From contig JALWNS010000333.1 in NCBI GenBank assembly GCA_027083655.1, positions 1-13,184 on the forward strand: DNA of 13,184 nt. The letters run 5' to 3'. The notes beneath the pieces are model-generated. The model did no database searches. It had not been told where the DNA came from and saw nothing but the letters and a program-made list of their open reading frames with translations. Source of the DNA: Bacteroidales bacterium. Lineage in GTDB: Bacteria > Bacteroidota > Bacteroidia > Bacteroidales > S143-33. Every line of letters starts with the position of its first letter. The first letter of the stretch is position 1. The position numbers and the translations under genes were made by a program. Shown here piece by piece: positions 383 to 5,603 of this stretch.

Positions 383-412
383 TTTCTTTTCTTAAATAAA
401 CATCTAATTTTG
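383..412 (+). promoter_or_regulatory. Bacteroidota-type promoter of the B12 operon
   Basis: TAATTTTG at 405-412 is an exact match to the Bacteroides -7 consensus TAnnTTTG. The -33 box is weaker: TTTC at 383-386 is one mismatch from TTTG, at an 18-base spacing. A start a few bases after 412 would place the first nucleotides at about 417-420, exactly where the 5' strand of riboswitch helix P1 begins (418). That agreement supports the assignment. The -33 mismatch is the weak point. Confidence 0.55.
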
Positions 413-417
413 ACAAG

Positions 418-575
418 TCAAAACGGTGCCTTTGCGGCTTAATAGGGAATCCGGTGTAAATCCGGAGCTGTCCCCGCAGCTGTGAGCGCCAAATGTTCCC
501 AGTGCAATAGCCACTGTCCTCAATGGATGGGAAGGCGCACTTGGGAGGCGCGAGCCAGAAGACCTGCCGTTTTGA
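418..575 (+). ncRNA. Cobalamin (vitamin B12) riboswitch aptamer
   Basis: The conserved aptamer blocks appear in the right order. GGTGCC is at 425-430. The TTGCGGCTTAATAGGGAA block is at 431-449. The CCGGTGTAAATCCGG arm is at 451-465. CTGTCCCCGCAGCTGT is at 468-483. The B12 box GCGAGCCAGAAGACCTGCC ends at 568. Helix P1 closes perfectly over 9 bp: TCAAAACGG (418-426) pairs with CCGTTTTGA (567-575). The element lies about 125 bases upstream of the first gene of the surface-protein operon and is in the same orientation. Family knowledge: this class binds adenosyl- or other cobalamins and usually lowers expression of B12 uptake or synthesis genes when the ligand is present. There is no U-tract after the aptamer, which points to control of translation initiation rather than transcription termination (inference). 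Confidence 0.97.
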
Positions 576-585
576 CAAAAACATC

Positions 586-699
586 TCTGTGCTTTCGGGG
601 GCTAAAGCACAGAACAGGAGCTTCCCTTTCTTGTCTTCTGTTCGGATACAAACCCCTGTAAAGCACAGCATCTAACTAAAACAAAAAAAAAGCTGTGCT
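586..699 (+). promoter_or_regulatory. Putative riboswitch expression platform with four interchangeable pairing segments
   Basis: Four short segments can pair in alternative ways. A is TCTGTGCTTT (586-595), B is AAAGCACAGA (604-613), C is AAAGCACAGC (660-669) and D is GCTGTGCT (692-699). A and B form a perfect 10-bp hairpin with an 8-base G-rich loop. C and D form a perfect 8-bp hairpin whose 3' strand ends on the base before the ATG at 700, so it would hide the initiation region. A can also pair with C, and D with B. GAACAG (612-617) and CTGTTC (638-643) can form a further stem that competes with the base of A-B. The loop GGGGG (597-601) is complementary to CCCC (653-656). No U-run follows any stem, so a translational switch is more likely than a terminator. 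The complementarity is directly visible; the switching mechanism is inferred. Confidence 0.6.
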
Positions 700-1659
700 A
701 TGAAAAAAATTGTACTTTTCTGGACCTTTGCTTTTGTTCTTTTTGTAGCAAAAGCTCAAGAAAAGGTATTCACACTGAATACCCTACCAGTACCAGACAC
801 TGGCTTCTACAATGGCAGTGACGGCCGGGGATACTTTGCCGACACAGTAGAAGATGTTTGGGTGAAATTTTACAATACCTATGACCAGACCTGGGGGTCG
901 TGGCAAGGATGGGCTTATTCAACATGGAAAGATGATACAACCGAAGGTTATACTAACCAATGGAGCACTTATTCCGGCTACCTTATTGACTCAACATTTG
1001 CCCTGGCATACGTGGCTATTGACTGGAATAATGATTACGAAAACATACCTGCAGGGATTAAATTCTCTTGTCCTGTGGAGCCGGTCTCCATTTATGTCGC
1101 TAATTGTACTTACACAGCATTAGTAATAAAGAATGGAAATAGTTTTGCGCGTGCCTTCGAACCTGGCGACTATTTTAAGCTTATTATTATAGGAATTAAC
1201 AATGGTATGCCTACTGATACTATTGAGCATTTCCTCGCAGACTACCGCGATAGTTTAAAGTATATCCAGAAAGACTGGGCATATATCGACCTTCGGCCGC
1301 TGGGAGAAGTTGACAGTATAAGTTTTAATGTAGTTAGCACCGATGTGGGGGATTACGGCATGAACACACCTGGTTATTTTGCCTTAGACTTATTACGATT
1401 TAATAAATCATCACGAACCACGGCTGTTTTTACACCGGACAATGATGATGAAATTAATATTTACCCAAACCCATCAACTTCTTATTTCATTGTACCACAA
1501 AATATTACAAAGACTGAATTATATGACATTTATGGCCACAAAATAGGTGAATGGTCTGTATCCAGAATAAATGTTTATGGTCTACAAAACGGTCTTTACA
1601 TAGTCCGCCTGTGGGACGGACAGCAGTGGATTAGTAAAAAGCTAATAATCAAACATTAA
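700..1659 (+). CDS. DUF4465-type secreted protein with T9SS C-terminal sorting domain, first gene of B12-riboswitch operon
   Basis: 319 aa. Residues 1-20 form a signal peptide (MKKIVLFWTFAFVLF then AKAQ, cleavage about A19/Q20). Residues 27-235 form an all-beta, aromatic-rich domain. Its opening (FYNGSDGRG, then a Trp-rich stretch WGSWQGWAYST and later WSTYSG) matches the pattern I associate with DUF4465 proteins. Residues 252-319 are a type A T9SS sorting domain: INIYPNP, then LYDIYGHKIGEW, then GLQNGLYIVRL and a basic end KKLIIKH. The protein should cross the outer membrane by T9SS and be anchored or released there. The ATG at 700 follows an A-rich leader and segment D of the riboswitch platform. 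The stop overlaps the next ATG by one base (TAATG). Its place directly after the riboswitch suggests a role in capturing or handling corrinoids. Binding itself is inference; enzymatic motifs were not seen. Confidence 0.85.
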   Translation: MKKIVLFWTFAFVLFVAKAQEKVFTLNTLPVPDTGFYNGSDGRGYFADTVEDVWVKFYNTYDQTWGSWQGWAYSTWKDDTTEGYTNQWSTYSGYLIDSTFALAYVAIDWNNDYENIPAGIKFSCPVEPVSIYVANCTYTALVIKNGNSFARAFEPGDYFKLIIIGINNGMPTDTIEHFLADYRDSLKYIQKDWAYIDLRPLGEVDSISFNVVSTDVGDYGMNTPGYFALDLLRFNKSSRTTAVFTPDNDDEINIYPNPSTSYFIVPQNITKTELYDIYGHKIGEWSVSRINVYGLQNGLYIVRLWDGQQWISKKLIIKH

Positions 1660-2639
1660 TGAGGCACAAGCTTACTATAATCCTGGTGTCTCTTTTTTTA
1701 CAGAGCCTGGCACAATTTTCCCCACAAGCAGGCTTGCCAGGCTCTAATGCTATTCCTGCCAATTCACCTTTATTCAAAGCCTGGGTACAAAATGGTTGGA
1801 TAAGCCCTGGATATATAGATATAGGAGACACAAATTTTACTATTGACCAGACCAATCGTGCACATTTTGGGGAGATACAAAATATTTTTGGCCCTGCGGA
1901 CGGCAAGGTTGTAAGTTTAGGTGACAAAGGTACGGTAACAATTTTTCTAAACCCACCCATCTATGATGGACCCGGTTATGACTTTGCAGTTTTTGAAAAT
2001 GGCTTCCGCAGCCTCAACGACTCGGCACTTGCATTCCTGGAGCTTGCTTACGTTGAAGTTAGTTCAGATGGTAAAAACTTCTTCACCTTTCCTGCTATTT
2101 CGCTGACTCAAGATACTGCGCAGGTAGGACCATTCGAAATGTTAGATGCTAGAAAAATTTACAATCTGGCAGGTAAATACATATCTGGATATGGCACACC
2201 TTTTGACCTTTCCGATCTAACTGGTTTCAAGGATAATGGCTTAGATCTTAACAATATTTCTTTTATCAGGATACGTGACGTTGGAGGTAGCATAAACCCT
2301 ATGTTGGCAAGCTATGACAGCCATGGACACAAGATTAATGACCCCTACCCCACTCCTTTTCTAAGCTCTGGCTTCGACTTAGATGCTATCGGACTTATTA
2401 ATATAAAAACAACAACAGTAAGGGTTTTCCCTAATCCTACAGACGGACAAATTTTCATCCAATCAAAAAACAAGATCAAAACACTAATTATTAACGACTT
2501 ACAAGGCAGAACAGTGTTTAAAAAATCCATGAATGTTAATTTTATTAAAATTGATCTTTCAAATCTAAAATCTGGGCTTTATTTTTGCATAATATTAGGA
2601 GATAATTTTAGAGCTGTTGAGGAAATAATTTTATTCTGA
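1659..2639 (+). CDS. T9SS-sorted cell-surface protein of the B12 operon, uncharacterised beta-domain family
   Basis: 326 aa. Residues 1-18 are a signal peptide (cleavage about A18/Q19). Residues 20-248 form one beta-rich domain with strongly patterned blocks: GPADGKVVSLGDKGTVTI (79-95), GPGYDFAVFENGF (104-116), FLELAYVEVSSDGKNF (126-141), YNLAGKYISGYGTPFDLSDL (168-187) and GFDLDAIGLI (238-247). I recall this block order from 'cell surface protein' entries found repeatedly in Bacteroidota B12 loci, usually without an assigned function. Acidic and Asn-rich turns (DGPGYD, DLDA, DSHGHKIND) could bind calcium (inference). Residues 252-326 are a T9SS sorting domain: VRVFPNPTDG, then LIINDLQGRTVFK, then LSNLKSGLYFCII. 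The start ATG overlaps the previous stop by one base and the stop overlaps the next start by one base, so translation is probably coupled. No catalytic motif was found. Confidence 0.8.
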   Translation: MRHKLTIILVSLFLQSLAQFSPQAGLPGSNAIPANSPLFKAWVQNGWISPGYIDIGDTNFTIDQTNRAHFGEIQNIFGPADGKVVSLGDKGTVTIFLNPPIYDGPGYDFAVFENGFRSLNDSALAFLELAYVEVSSDGKNFFTFPAISLTQDTAQVGPFEMLDARKIYNLAGKYISGYGTPFDLSDLTGFKDNGLDLNNISFIRIRDVGGSINPMLASYDSHGHKINDPYPTPFLSSGFDLDAIGLINIKTTTVRVFPNPTDGQIFIQSKNKIKTLIINDLQGRTVFKKSMNVNFIKIDLSNLKSGLYFCIILGDNFRAVEEIILF

Positions 2640-3328
2640 TGAAACATAAATTATTGACAATAAGCTTATTAGCTTTTTTCTTTTTTTTGTCAGGTTGCCA
2701 GAACATTTTTAGTAAAAAGCTTATCAGGGAAGGAATAGCCACATTTACAATCAATTACGAAACAACAAAAGAAGAAAATCCCATTGTAATTTTATTACCT
2801 CACAAGATGTATACTTACTTCAAGGATGATAAAAGTGCCTCAATAGTCGAAGGCTTTTTTGGCACTTTCCGTATGGTAATGCTCAATAGGCCAGACCTGG
2901 GTCAAAAATATACAATTGTCAGAATTCTTGATAAAAAATACATTTATGAAACAAACCTTGACGGAAAACCCTTTGCCAGTAGCCAAATGCAAAATATGAA
3001 AATTAAACTCCTCGATACAAGTTTCGTTTACAAAGGCTTTAATTGCAAGGCTGCGGCTATTTATTGCCCTTCGATACAACAGGATACATTTCTTATTTAC
3101 TATACAACAGACCTGGGTATTAAATATGCAAATGTAAATACTCCATATTACCAAATTCCTGGTGTTTTAGTTAAATTTAAGCTAAAATTACTAGATGTCG
3201 TTATGGATATTTCATTAGAAGAAGTTGCTAGCAAAAAGATAGAACCAACAACTCTTGAAATTCCAAAAGAAGGATACAAATATGTTAGCTACGAACAATT
3301 AGAAGAAATTTTAAATTCACTGCAGTGA
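2639..3328 (+). CDS. Predicted lipoprotein resembling the GLPGLI/DUF4412 group, third gene of B12 operon
   Basis: 229 aa. Residues 1-20 form a lipoprotein signal with a canonical lipobox L17-S18-G19-C20, so the mature protein should carry lipid on Cys20 and sit in the outer membrane or periplasm. The rest is beta-rich. It opens with GIATFTINYETT and continues with a putative 'iYfK-D-k' segment (MYTYFKDDKSASIVEG), then a KYIYETN strand. Next come a central LLDTSFVYKGFNCKAA block and an ending strand set (YYQIPGVLVKFKL) before a short helical tail ending EEILNSLQ. The pattern 'kl.dt..i.Gy.Ckka' followed by 'y....G..l.y' resembles Bacteroidota GLPGLI/DUF4412 proteins, whose role is unknown. That family match is from memory and moderate. 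The ATG overlaps the previous stop (TGATG), and the stop overlaps the next GTG start over four bases (GTGA, 3325-3328). No enzyme motif was seen. Confidence 0.75.
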   Translation: MKHKLLTISLLAFFFFLSGCQNIFSKKLIREGIATFTINYETTKEENPIVILLPHKMYTYFKDDKSASIVEGFFGTFRMVMLNRPDLGQKYTIVRILDKKYIYETNLDGKPFASSQMQNMKIKLLDTSFVYKGFNCKAAAIYCPSIQQDTFLIYYTTDLGIKYANVNTPYYQIPGVLVKFKLKLLDVVMDISLEEVASKKIEPTTLEIPKEGYKYVSYEQLEEILNSLQ

Positions 3329-4809
3329 TATCCATAAGAAAAAATAGCTTTATCGTATTGATCTTATTACTTTTGTTATTCTTTTCCTGCGAAAAAAAAC
3401 ATGATAGGCTTTATAGCTTTTACAGAGTCTATTTCCCTTCTTCATACATGACTCTCAATGGTGCAGTATTAAGGACACAAGCAATACCTGATCAAATACA
3501 TTACATTGATTCCGTTCCTGCCCTCACACCTTTTTCTGCAATAATACAGGGAGAATTTGGTGCAGTATATGATACAATAATACAATATGGCCATGTATGG
3601 TCCATGACAAACCCAAACCCTGTTATTAACCCACGAGATACTAGTTCATACTCACGGCTAGGACAGTGGCCTACAGATAGCTCTGGTATATTTCTTACTG
3701 AAATAAATAACCTATATCCCAACACCCCATTTTATGTAAGGTCTTATATTGTTACTATTCACGGAGACACTGGATACAACCCTGTTATTCTAATAGATAC
3801 AACACTTAGAGCAGTTGACACATGGTTTATTGCTCCAATCTTACCAGGCTCGATAAGAACAGGTGCCGTAGGTGAAACATATTACGACACTGATTTAGGT
3901 TATGAAATTGGAATAATTGCCGGAGGTAATAATGCGAATGAAGTTTTAAATGATATGTGGTTTTATGATCCACAAACCAGGACATGGACCGAAAAAGCTA
4001 ATATACCATACAGAGCAACACAAGCAGTAGGATTTGTTATCACTTATACAAAGCTTGACGGTAATGAGATAACTAAATTTTATTACGGTACCGGGGAGAC
4101 AAGTCCATACGGGTACGGACAAACAGACCTTTGGTACGAATATGATTTCTCTTCTAATACATGGTCACAAACCATTTCCCAGACATCATACCCAATAAAA
4201 ATCAGCCGGGCCGTAGGTTTTTCTATAAAAAAATACGGTTATGTAGCCTTTGGACAGACAGACAATGGCAATACTACAACTACTATTTACAGATTCGATC
4301 CAAGCGAAGCAGACCGTAGTAATGGTGTACCGTGGGAGCTCATGCCTGTTTTGGACGCACAATATGCTCGAATGGATGCAATAGTCTTCGTAATAGATTC
4401 TGCAGCATACATTGGGCTAGGACAACAAAATGCAACACAATATTTTTCTGATTTATGGAGTTTTGTCCCAAACACTACCACCGGCGGTAATTGGAGCAGG
4501 AAAGCTTCATTTCCAGGACAGCCTAGATCACAAGCAGTAGCATTTGCTATTGGTTATAATGGCTTTGTTGGCCTTGGTTATAATGATACACAGGGATTTA
4601 AGGACTTTTACCGTTATGATGCTCTGGGCAACTCATGGACTAAAATTACTGATTACAAAATAGGACCAGATTTCAATGGTGAAGAGCAAGCTGTGAGAGA
4701 TGCGGTAGCTATCAGAATTGGAGAACTAGGACTGGTAGGTACTGGTTATAAAGTTTACGACTCATTAACCCCTTATGCCAAAGATTTTTGGTATTATCAG
4801 CCATGGTAA
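3325..4809 (+). CDS. Kelch-propeller lipoprotein with FnIII-like N-terminal module, fourth gene of B12 operon
   Basis: 494 aa from a GTG start. This start is chosen because it keeps the signal peptide and overlaps the previous stop by four bases; the next Met (residue 42) would lose the export signal. Residues 1-22 form a lipoprotein signal with a loose lipobox F19-F20-S21-C22, followed by EKK. Residues about 40-160 form an FnIII/Ig-like module of the type common in Bacteroidota (YGHVWSMTNPNP, then LYPNTPFYVRSYI). Residues about 168-494 hold Kelch repeats: AGGNNANEVLNDMWFYDPQTR..W, YGTGET...DLWYEYDFSSNTW, FGQTDN...YRFDP, GLGQQN..YFSDLWSFVP, GLGYNDTQGFKDFYRYD..W and GTGYKVY....DFWYYQPW. The last repeat looks closed by the strand at 168-190, giving a likely six-bladed propeller. 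BtuG of Bacteroides is also a surface lipoprotein propeller (seven blades, different family) that binds B12. The analogy is inference. Confidence 0.85.
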   Translation: MISIRKNSFIVLILLLLLFFSCEKKHDRLYSFYRVYFPSSYMTLNGAVLRTQAIPDQIHYIDSVPALTPFSAIIQGEFGAVYDTIIQYGHVWSMTNPNPVINPRDTSSYSRLGQWPTDSSGIFLTEINNLYPNTPFYVRSYIVTIHGDTGYNPVILIDTTLRAVDTWFIAPILPGSIRTGAVGETYYDTDLGYEIGIIAGGNNANEVLNDMWFYDPQTRTWTEKANIPYRATQAVGFVITYTKLDGNEITKFYYGTGETSPYGYGQTDLWYEYDFSSNTWSQTISQTSYPIKISRAVGFSIKKYGYVAFGQTDNGNTTTTIYRFDPSEADRSNGVPWELMPVLDAQYARMDAIVFVIDSAAYIGLGQQNATQYFSDLWSFVPNTTTGGNWSRKASFPGQPRSQAVAFAIGYNGFVGLGYNDTQGFKDFYRYDALGNSWTKITDYKIGPDFNGEEQAVRDAVAIRIGELGLVGTGYKVYDSLTPYAKDFWYYQPW

Positions 4810-4820
4810 AAAGAAATGTC

Positions 4821-5603
4821 ATGAAAAAAATAATATTCTTAATATCATTAATCCTGTGGGCATGGACATCATCTGCCCAATGGAGTGAGTTTAATTATTT
4901 TGCTATTCGTCTTGGGATTACAAACCAATTTCTAAACCCTGCACCTCTGAGCTCTAACGGTTTGTTTATAAATTCATACGAAGGAGATAGATATCTTATC
5001 CCTGATACAAATAAATATCTCAAATACAATGGTGGATTTGACATAGGTGTTAATTTCCATTTTGACTGGCATAATGACATGGGTGGTTTTGTCATTGGTG
5101 CAGAATATTACAACTTTGCCGTTTCTAATAAATTTGTCTCTACATCATCCGATGATTATATCATAAGAACGATGAGAATACATTCTGTCAGTTTCCCTGT
5201 TTATGTCAAATTTGGTTATGAAATATTCAACTTGCAAAGGTACGCATTCTTAGGTGTAAGATTTAATTGGAATTTACAATTAGATATATCCGAGGAAGCA
5301 AGCTGGAACAGTGAACTACGTACGCAATCTCATACCGATGAAGTTATGCTCCAATATAACTTTGTAATAATGGGCGGTATCAACTTCTTATTTTTTAACG
5401 TAGAAGCAGATTTCTTCCCTAATACATTCCTCAACAAAAACTATATACTTGACGTGGGAACAGAAACTAGCCCTTACTATATTAAACCATTTGAAACATA
5501 CCCCAATACATACTTTGTCGTTTCCACATCCATTTATATTCCTTTATCACCATGGGCAACAACAAGAAGCTATTTCCTCAATAAACTGCTAAAAATGTTT
5601 TAA
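4821..5603 (+). CDS. Outer-membrane beta-barrel protein, last gene of B12 operon
   Basis: 260 aa from the ATG at 4821, which opens a clean signal peptide (MKKIIFLISLILWAWTSSAQ, cleavage about A19/Q20). In-frame ATGs at 4788 and 4803 would add a poor N-terminus and overlap the preceding gene. The mature part alternates hydrophobic and polar residues in about eight strand-like segments rich in Tyr, Phe and Gly. Examples are YFAIRLGI, GGFDIGVNFHFDW, GGFVIGAEYYNF, FPVYVKFGYEI, YAFLGVRFNWNL, VMLQYNFVIMGGINFLFFNVEADFF and TYFVVSTSIYI. This resembles the small OmpA/PorT-like barrels of Bacteroidota (OMP_b-brl group). It is far too small for a TonB-dependent receptor and shows no plug domain. A tail of about 20 residues (PLSPWATTRSYF... 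ending KMF) continues past the last strand, unusual for barrels that end on an aromatic residue. Only 11 bases separate it from the Kelch gene, so it belongs to the same transcript. Confidence 0.75.
   Translation: MKKIIFLISLILWAWTSSAQWSEFNYFAIRLGITNQFLNPAPLSSNGLFINSYEGDRYLIPDTNKYLKYNGGFDIGVNFHFDWHNDMGGFVIGAEYYNFAVSNKFVSTSSDDYIIRTMRIHSVSFPVYVKFGYEIFNLQRYAFLGVRFNWNLQLDISEEASWNSELRTQSHTDEVMLQYNFVIMGGINFLFFNVEADFFPNTFLNKNYILDVGTETSPYYIKPFETYPNTYFVVSTSIYIPLSPWATTRSYFLNKLLKMF

What the first reader, a model, noticed from the sequence alone, without database searches (positions are those of the whole stretch)
418..5603. B12-riboswitch operon of five exported proteins and no transporter: candidate surface corrinoid-capture system
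A clear cobalamin aptamer controls five overlapping or tightly spaced genes, all with export signals: two T9SS-sorted proteins, two lipoproteins (one a Kelch propeller) and a small outer-membrane barrel. No TonB-dependent receptor, BtuF, ABC permease or B12 synthesis gene is present. Gut Bacteroides use the surface lipoproteins BtuG and BtuH next to BtuB to take up B12. This set looks like a parallel solution with partly different folds and T9SS delivery. Apart from DUF4465-like and Kelch features, I recognise no assigned function.
Basis: partly seen in the sequence, partly recalled or inferred. Interest (0 to 1): 0.72.

Follow-up and report, generated by a model that had tools for sequence, protein, structure and literature searches.

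The report
Surface vitamin B12 capture operon
A vitamin-B12-controlled gene set in an uncultured bacterium makes two secreted surface proteins that very probably catch vitamin B12, one from a known B12-binding family and one from a widespread unnamed family that resembles another known B12 catcher, while a likely import channel is encoded elsewhere in the genome.

The parts
407..585 (+). cobalamin riboswitch aptamer (RF00174)
   Evidence: 126.4 bits, gathering 31.5; the only one in the held genome; one in each of 4 genus genomes
586..613 (+). conserved hairpin UCUGUGCUUU-CGGGGGCU-AAAGCACAGA, probable expression platform; its G-rich loop faces a conserved C-run downstream
   Evidence: 586-730 folds with z -2.99, 5 of 200 shuffles as well; arms and GGGGG loop conserved in 4 genomes; the switching role is inference
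662..699 (+). second hairpin AGCACAGC...GCUGUGCU that ends directly before the gene 1 start codon; its arms repeat those of the first hairpin
   Evidence: role in masking the start codon is inference
700..1659 (+). gene 1: DUF4465 (BtuJ-family) B12-binding protein, 319 aa, Sec leader + T9SS type A tail
   Evidence: PF14717 149 bits; PDB matches 9hmu 6.8e-21 and 9fct 5.3e-10; MNTPGY loop at aa 221
1360..1377 (+). B12-binding HI loop MNTPGY of gene 1
   Evidence: published BtuJ1 motif MNTPSY with Tyr245 (PMC12751083)
1459..1650 (+). T9SS sorting tail of gene 1 (aa 254-317)
   Evidence: PF18962 37.4 bits, TIGR04183 38.2 bits
1659..2639 (+). gene 2: unnamed conserved T9SS protein with BtuH-like domain, 326 aa
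1713..2408 (+). BtuH-like discoidin-type domain of gene 2 (aa 19-250)
2424..2630 (+). T9SS sorting tail of gene 2 (aa 256-324)
   Evidence: PF18962 49.9 bits, TIGR04183 43.0 bits
2639..3328 (+). gene 3: lipoprotein (lipobox read by eye), 229 aa, no Pfam/NCBIfam family; relatives outside the genus beside an ftsK-like gene in 10 of 16 loci read
3325..4809 (+). gene 4: lipoprotein (lipobox read by eye) with N-terminal domain and Kelch propeller, 494 aa
   Evidence: Kelch_4 60.8 bits; relatives
4821..5603 (+). gene 5: small outer-membrane beta-barrel, 260 aa
   Evidence: PF13568 26.5 bits, cut-off 27; pairs with gene 4 in other genomes

Best explanation
This is a B12-repressed surface capture operon. 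Genes 1 and 2 are exported by Sec, moved across the outer membrane by T9SS and held at, or shed from, the surface. There gene 1 (DUF4465/BtuJ) and gene 2 (a BtuH-like domain) bind cobamides and hand them to a TonB-dependent BtuB-type receptor, which in this genus is encoded elsewhere. Genes 3-5 are co-transcribed envelope proteins that stand in the BtuB-BtuG position in this genus; the Kelch lipoprotein may help at the surface. Shown here: riboswitch, domains, tight gene packing, conservation, association of gene 2 with BtuB/BtuG/riboswitch loci, BtuH-like predicted fold, unlinked BtuB-like receptor, NrdJ. Shown by others: B12 binding by DUF4465 and by BtuH. Inferred: repression by B12, B12 binding by genes 1 and 2 themselves, surface display, hand-over to the unlinked receptor, any role of genes 3-5.
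For: Riboswitch. DUF4465 with the published binding-loop motif (PMC12751083 and PMC13398666, read). Gene 2 domain at E <= 3.2e-31 in 30 of 99 genomes, own included; 23 of those 30 have a listed cobalamin riboswitch 0.1-2.5 kb upstream on the same contig and strand (listing truncated, so a lower bound). In 80 loci from named records, BtuG homologues lie within 6 kb on the same strand in 66, BtuB in 58, either in 68, DUF4465 in 45. A riboswitch motif lies upstream in 33 of 80, none on the other strand or in block-shuffled sequence, and Rfam finds one in 13 of 17 scanned loci of the 47 without the motif. Gene 2 domain fused to DUF4465 in 4 of 5 long relatives. The top two VIA-align rows for the gene 2 domain are the two BtuH structures. 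BtuB-like receptor in 4 of 4 genus genomes, inside the BtuB clade. NrdJ over cut-off in 4 of 4.
Against: No sequence match of the gene 2 profile to BtuH structures. Foldseek's own top 50 rows for the domain are discoidin/CBM-like and others, with no BtuH, and identity to BtuH is 17%. BtuH ligand residues could not be mapped. Three of 80 loci with at least 6 kb on both sides have no BtuB/BtuG near gene 2 on its strand (L244, L248, L288), and L288 has no DUF4465 either. The BtuB-like receptor has no riboswitch and sits beside a PP2C phosphatase gene, so its substrate is inferred. BtuG, BtuF and BtuD were not searched in the genus.
Confidence: 0.76

Rival explanations
1. Genes 3-5 are functional replacements of BtuB-BtuG: the Kelch propeller lipoprotein acts as the B12-binding lid in place of BtuG, with the small barrel and the gene 3 lipoprotein as partners, and they work with genes 1-2 at the surface.
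For: They occupy the slot where relatives usually have BtuB-BtuG, overlap gene 2 and each other by 1-4 bases or lie 11 bases apart, are conserved in 4 of 4 genus genomes, and genes 4 and 5 at higher identity than gene 1 in each comparison (gene 4: 80/73/49%, gene 5: 82/78/58%, gene 1: 66/58/44%). BtuG is also a propeller lipoprotein (for its solved relatives; lipoprotein status from PMC10404256).
Against: Gene 3 matches occur in 50 of 99 genomes, beside an ftsK-like gene in 10 of 16 loci read. Gene 4-5 pairs occur elsewhere in relatives and in the window's own genome without riboswitch, gene 1, gene 2 or BtuG. A small barrel of this type is not expected to pass B12 (general knowledge). A BtuB-like receptor exists elsewhere.
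Confidence: 0.15
2. Genes 3-5 are bystanders: a rearrangement placed ordinary envelope genes behind the capture pair and they are merely co-transcribed or have their own promoter.
For: Their relatives read elsewhere are unlinked to B12. Capture-only operons (riboswitch, DUF4465, gene 2, no BtuB/BtuG near) exist in L244 and L248.
Against: Overlapping stop/start codons across genes 2-3 and 3-4, and conservation in 4 of 4 genus genomes. Six database contigs besides the window's probably carry both gene 2 and gene 4 relatives, judged only by equal contig lengths in two capped lists; some may belong to this genus.
Confidence: 0.5
3. Gene 2 is a carbohydrate-binding (CBM32/discoidin-type) surface protein that only travels with B12 loci and does not bind B12.
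Confidence: 0.15

Closest known systems
BtuJ1/BtuJ2 (DUF4465, IPR027828) of Bacteroides thetaiotaomicron and relatives
   Same: Gene 1 is a clear family member with the binding loop motif, in a riboswitch-headed operon. C-terminal sorting tails in this family are already noted in print: 229 of 824 sequences carry IPR026444 (PMC12751083; that this entry is the T9SS tail is recalled).
   Different: B. theta BtuJ are lipoproteins; gene 1 ends in a T9SS tail.
BtuH (BtuH2, PDB 7BIZ; H-domain of BtuG1, PDB 8BLW)
   Same: Predicted fold of the gene 2 domain matches the B12-binding domain best; relatives lie in BtuB/BtuG loci.
   Different: No sequence similarity found by profile search; no PKD domains seen; T9SS tail in place of a lipid anchor; strongly conserved family without a Pfam or NCBIfam model over cut-off.
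BtuB-BtuG uptake loci of Bacteroidota
   Same: Riboswitch, surface B12-binding accessory proteins; relatives of this locus contain BtuB and BtuG.
   Different: BtuB and BtuG are absent from the operon; genes 3-5 stand in their place; a BtuB-like receptor lies elsewhere without a riboswitch.

Membership tests
Cobalamin riboswitch (RF00174) | covariance model score over the gathering cut-off, full length | tested here: met
   126.4 bits against 31.5, model 1-189 of 189
DUF4465 / BtuJ (gene 1) | PF14717 domain | tested here: met
   149 bits, cut-off 25
DUF4465 / BtuJ (gene 1) | HI-loop motif with the B12-contacting tyrosine | tested here: met
   MNTPGY at aa 221-226, aligned with the BtuJ1 loop; published motif MNTPSY
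DUF4465 / BtuJ (gene 1) | binds cobalamin | not testable with these tools
   wet experiment
BtuH (gene 2) | fold of the C-terminal B12-binding domain | tested here: met
BtuH (gene 2) | sequence homology to BtuH | tested here: inconclusive
   profile searches of solved structures list no BtuH chain up to E 1 and E 10
BtuH (gene 2) | cobamide-contacting residues (Gln333, Asn399, His476, Tyr510, Trp511, Trp577 of BtuH2) | not tested
   coordinates and sequence of 7BIZ were not available to align; residues taken from PMC8941943
BtuH (gene 2) | surface lipoprotein | tested here: not met
   T9SS tail instead; leader without lipobox cysteine, read by eye
T9SS type A cargo (genes 1, 2) | TIGR04183 tail over cut-off | tested here: met
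   38.2 and 43.0 bits, cut-off 23
BtuB-BtuG locus | TonB-dependent receptor and DUF5074 propeller in the operon | tested here: not met
   none among the 11 window proteins scanned nor found beside the operon in the 3 other genus genomes, as far as their contigs reach
BtuB (receptor elsewhere in the genus) | groups with BtuB of riboswitch loci, apart from other TonB receptors | tested here: inconclusive
   266-301 bits on a BtuB profile; the longest frame of each of 30 fetched plug loci gives at most 99 (30 of the 132 or so plug matches, many cut by the stretch end). Nests among 54 locus BtuBs (support 0.94 and 0.93) with 10 other receptors outside, but on a long branch

The most novel reading that the evidence does not exclude
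In this genus the BtuB-BtuG step of a B12 locus was replaced under the riboswitch by a Kelch-propeller lipoprotein, a small outer-membrane barrel and an accessory lipoprotein. These form a new type of surface lid or relay, fed by a T9SS-secreted BtuJ plus BtuH-like pair, and serve a cell whose main B12 user is class II ribonucleotide reductase.
Probability: 0.13. Interest if true: 0.8.

Novelty: new variant of a known kind. Interest (0 to 1): 0.56.

Why it matters
It gives a likely function to a strongly conserved, unnamed protein family (gene 2), of which one capped scan found 553 coding stretches in public genomes, nearly all of the listed ones titled Bacteroidota. It suggests that the B12-capture toolkit known from gut Bacteroides as lipoproteins exists widely in a T9SS-secreted form. 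It also shows that capture genes can be uncoupled from the transporter. The prediction can be tested with one purified protein and a B12 column.

Tried and rejected
Rejected: 'no transporter in the cell' (a BtuB-like receptor exists). Rejected: gene 2 is just a T9SS tail protein (83 of 99 genomes matched it at E <= 0.001, but the rows below the best 30 or so mostly align only to the tail). Rejected: genes 3-5 as a general B12 module.

Led nowhere: a close-relative scan of genome contigs with gene 2 alone (61 stretches, no relative); PDB profile searches for gene 2 (T9SS tails, or nothing better than E 0.066 for the domain); promoter/terminator scan (20 promoter-like against 20.3 expected, 3 terminator-like against 3.5). 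The full-length gene 2 model had mostly beta-glucuronidases as Foldseek's best rows and the domain model mostly discoidin-type domains; BtuH came up only in the VIA-align second look. A strict [GN]TPxY[FV] motif was found in 29 of 46 DUF4465 frames, so it is not universal in that spelling. The FecCD permease found once in each genus genome is not shown to carry B12; I recognised no B12 gene beside it in the three of four genomes read. The c3 proteins (T9SS proteins in the DUF4465 slot of some loci) were not resolved. 30 of the 47 loci without the riboswitch motif were not scanned with Rfam.

Print: searches listed no paper on a T9SS BtuH-like protein; (BtuH and T9SS together) returned 0 papers. 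Only open-licence PMC text was searched. Papers seen: PMC13398666 abstract, Results and Discussion; PMC12751083 abstract, first two of three parts of Results, passages; PMC8941943 abstract and two Results sections; PMC10404256 passages; PMC9723704 one passage; others search listing only.
Full report
What is there. The window is one whole contig (G000:C333) of a 2.53 Mb draft genome, 75% complete. A full-length cobalamin aptamer lies at 407-585 (126.4 bits). Five genes follow with 1-, 1- and 4-base overlaps and an 11-base gap, so they read as one operon. The stretch between aptamer and start codon holds two hairpins whose arms are repeats of each other, the second ending directly before the ATG (z -2.99, 5 of 200 shuffles fold as well). 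The first hairpin's arms and a GGGGG loop are conserved in four genus genomes. I infer a start-codon-masking switch.

Gene 1. DUF4465 at 149 bits plus a T9SS tail. The best PDB matches include the DUF4465-B12 structures 9hmu, 9fct and 9i2l, and the binding loop reads MNTPGY. DUF4465 was published as a B12-binding domain: BtuJ1 and BtuJ2 (PMC12751083) and six more divergent members (PMC13398666). So this gene has an assigned function, and C-terminal sorting tails on this family are already counted in print.

Gene 2. Pfam and NCBIfam know only its T9SS tail, besides sub-threshold rows such as a 41-residue match to a Leptospira lipoprotein family. The domain is strongly conserved: 26 invariant columns in 56 sequences. 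A domain-level match (E <= 3.2e-31) exists in 30 of 99 genomes, own included. By tblastn, DUF4465 lies nearby in 17 of the 29 other loci, tail-only hits not counted. The riboswitches listed lie 0.1-2.5 kb upstream in 23 of the 30, a lower bound because that listing is cut. The usual order is riboswitch, DUF4465 or another T9SS protein, gene 2, BtuB, BtuG, with variations. With score limits of my choosing, BtuG homologues lie within 6 kb on the same strand in 66 of 80, BtuB in 58, both in 56, either in 68, DUF4465 in 45. Of the 12 with neither, 3 are this genus, 6 run into a contig edge and 3 are real (L244, L248, L288). A strict riboswitch motif lies upstream in 33 of 80, with no hit on the other strand or in block shuffles. 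Rfam on 17 of the 47 loci without the motif found a riboswitch in 13; the other 30 were not scanned. In 4 of the 5 long relatives examined, gene 2 domain and DUF4465 sit in one polypeptide ahead of one T9SS tail.

Genes 3-5. In 3 genus genomes genes 1-5 are contiguous. In G002, gene 2 runs off the end of one contig and genes 3-5 begin near the end of another, whose last codons read like the end of the gene 2 tail; I count it as the same arrangement, 4 of 4. Six pairs of gene 2 and gene 4 relatives in the protein database, besides the window's own, have equal longest-contig lengths (capped lists), which suggests that the link extends a little beyond these genomes; this is inference. Elsewhere the parts live apart. 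Gene 3 matches occur in 50 of 99 genomes. Of the 16 loci read outside the genus, 10 have next to or one gene from gene 3 a gene that I recognise from memory as ftsK-like. Gene 4-5 pairs were seen on 15 of the 20 stretches fetched (4 of the 20 were fetched for the BtuB-like receptor, and one holds gene 4 alone at a contig end). None of the 15 shows a gene 1, gene 2 or BtuG match or a cobalamin riboswitch; one of them, L152, is the split genus operon. I see no evidence yet that these proteins handle B12.

The rest of the cell. A BtuB-like receptor exists in each of the 4 genus genomes. It scores 266-301 bits on a BtuB profile, while the best of the longest frames of 30 other plug loci scores 99. 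Its four PDB matches up to E 0.01 are two chains named BtuB and two unnamed receptors, 8p97 and 8bmx, of entries that also hold BtuG-like chains. A tree of 68 receptors places it among the locus BtuBs, on a long branch. Rfam finds no riboswitch on its four stretches, and it sits beside a PP2C phosphatase gene. One FecCD permease per genus genome was found. No PF02310 B12-binding domain was found in 4 of 4 genus genomes (two other genomes in that search had 4 and 8 matches), while adenosylcobalamin-dependent ribonucleotide reductase passes its cut-off in 4 of 4. So the need for B12 is at least DNA precursor synthesis. Other B12 enzymes without PF02310 were not searched, and the genomes are drafts of 75-96% completeness.

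Verdict. A B12-controlled, T9SS-delivered capture pair (BtuJ + BtuH-like), with a likely import receptor elsewhere. The strongest new element is gene 2, a widespread unnamed family that now has a testable function. The replacement of BtuB-BtuG by genes 3-5 in this genus is real as an arrangement, but its meaning is open. Two capture-only operons elsewhere (L244 by motif, L248 by Rfam) show that the pair can stand without a linked transporter.

Noticed in passing
G000-G003: No PF02310 B12-binding domain in 4 of 4 genus genomes although class II ribonucleotide reductase is present in 4 of 4: a cell that may need B12 only for making DNA precursors.
   Followed up: partly
L146-L149 (G000:C203, G001:C270, G002:C262, G003:C296): The BtuB-like receptor is followed by a PP2C-like gene in all four genus genomes (read; the G001 copy matches Stp1/IreP-type PP2C at 179.9 bits, under the cut-off of 230); unusual partner.
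   Followed up: no
window 586-699: Repeats of one 8-9 base arm between aptamer and start codon could form mutually exclusive hairpins, with a possible GGGGG/CCCC loop contact.
   Followed up: partly
window:1659-2639, aa 105-145: Sub-threshold NCBIfam match to the LIC_13355 lipoprotein family (23.9 bits, cut-off 120): a possible distant relative of the gene 2 domain, in Leptospira if I recall the name rightly.
   Followed up: no
L150-L165: Kelch lipoprotein plus small barrel gene pairs recur, in several genomes twice, with no common neighbours that I recognised: a two-gene envelope module that I could not name.
   Followed up: partly
L268, L278, L282, L304: In four loci, titled from yak, horse or rumen or as Limimorpha, a T9SS protein of about 400 aa takes the DUF4465 slot before gene 2; the one scanned (L268) has no Pfam domain besides the tail. 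Another candidate B12 binder.
   Followed up: no
window:7209-10931 (-): A 1240-aa alpha-amylase-type protein with a CBM48 match and T9SS tail.
   Followed up: no
window:11033-13142: Cytidylyltransferase, metallo-beta-lactamase-fold protein of RNase Z type (as I recall it) and STAS-domain protein; nothing B12-related.
   Followed up: no
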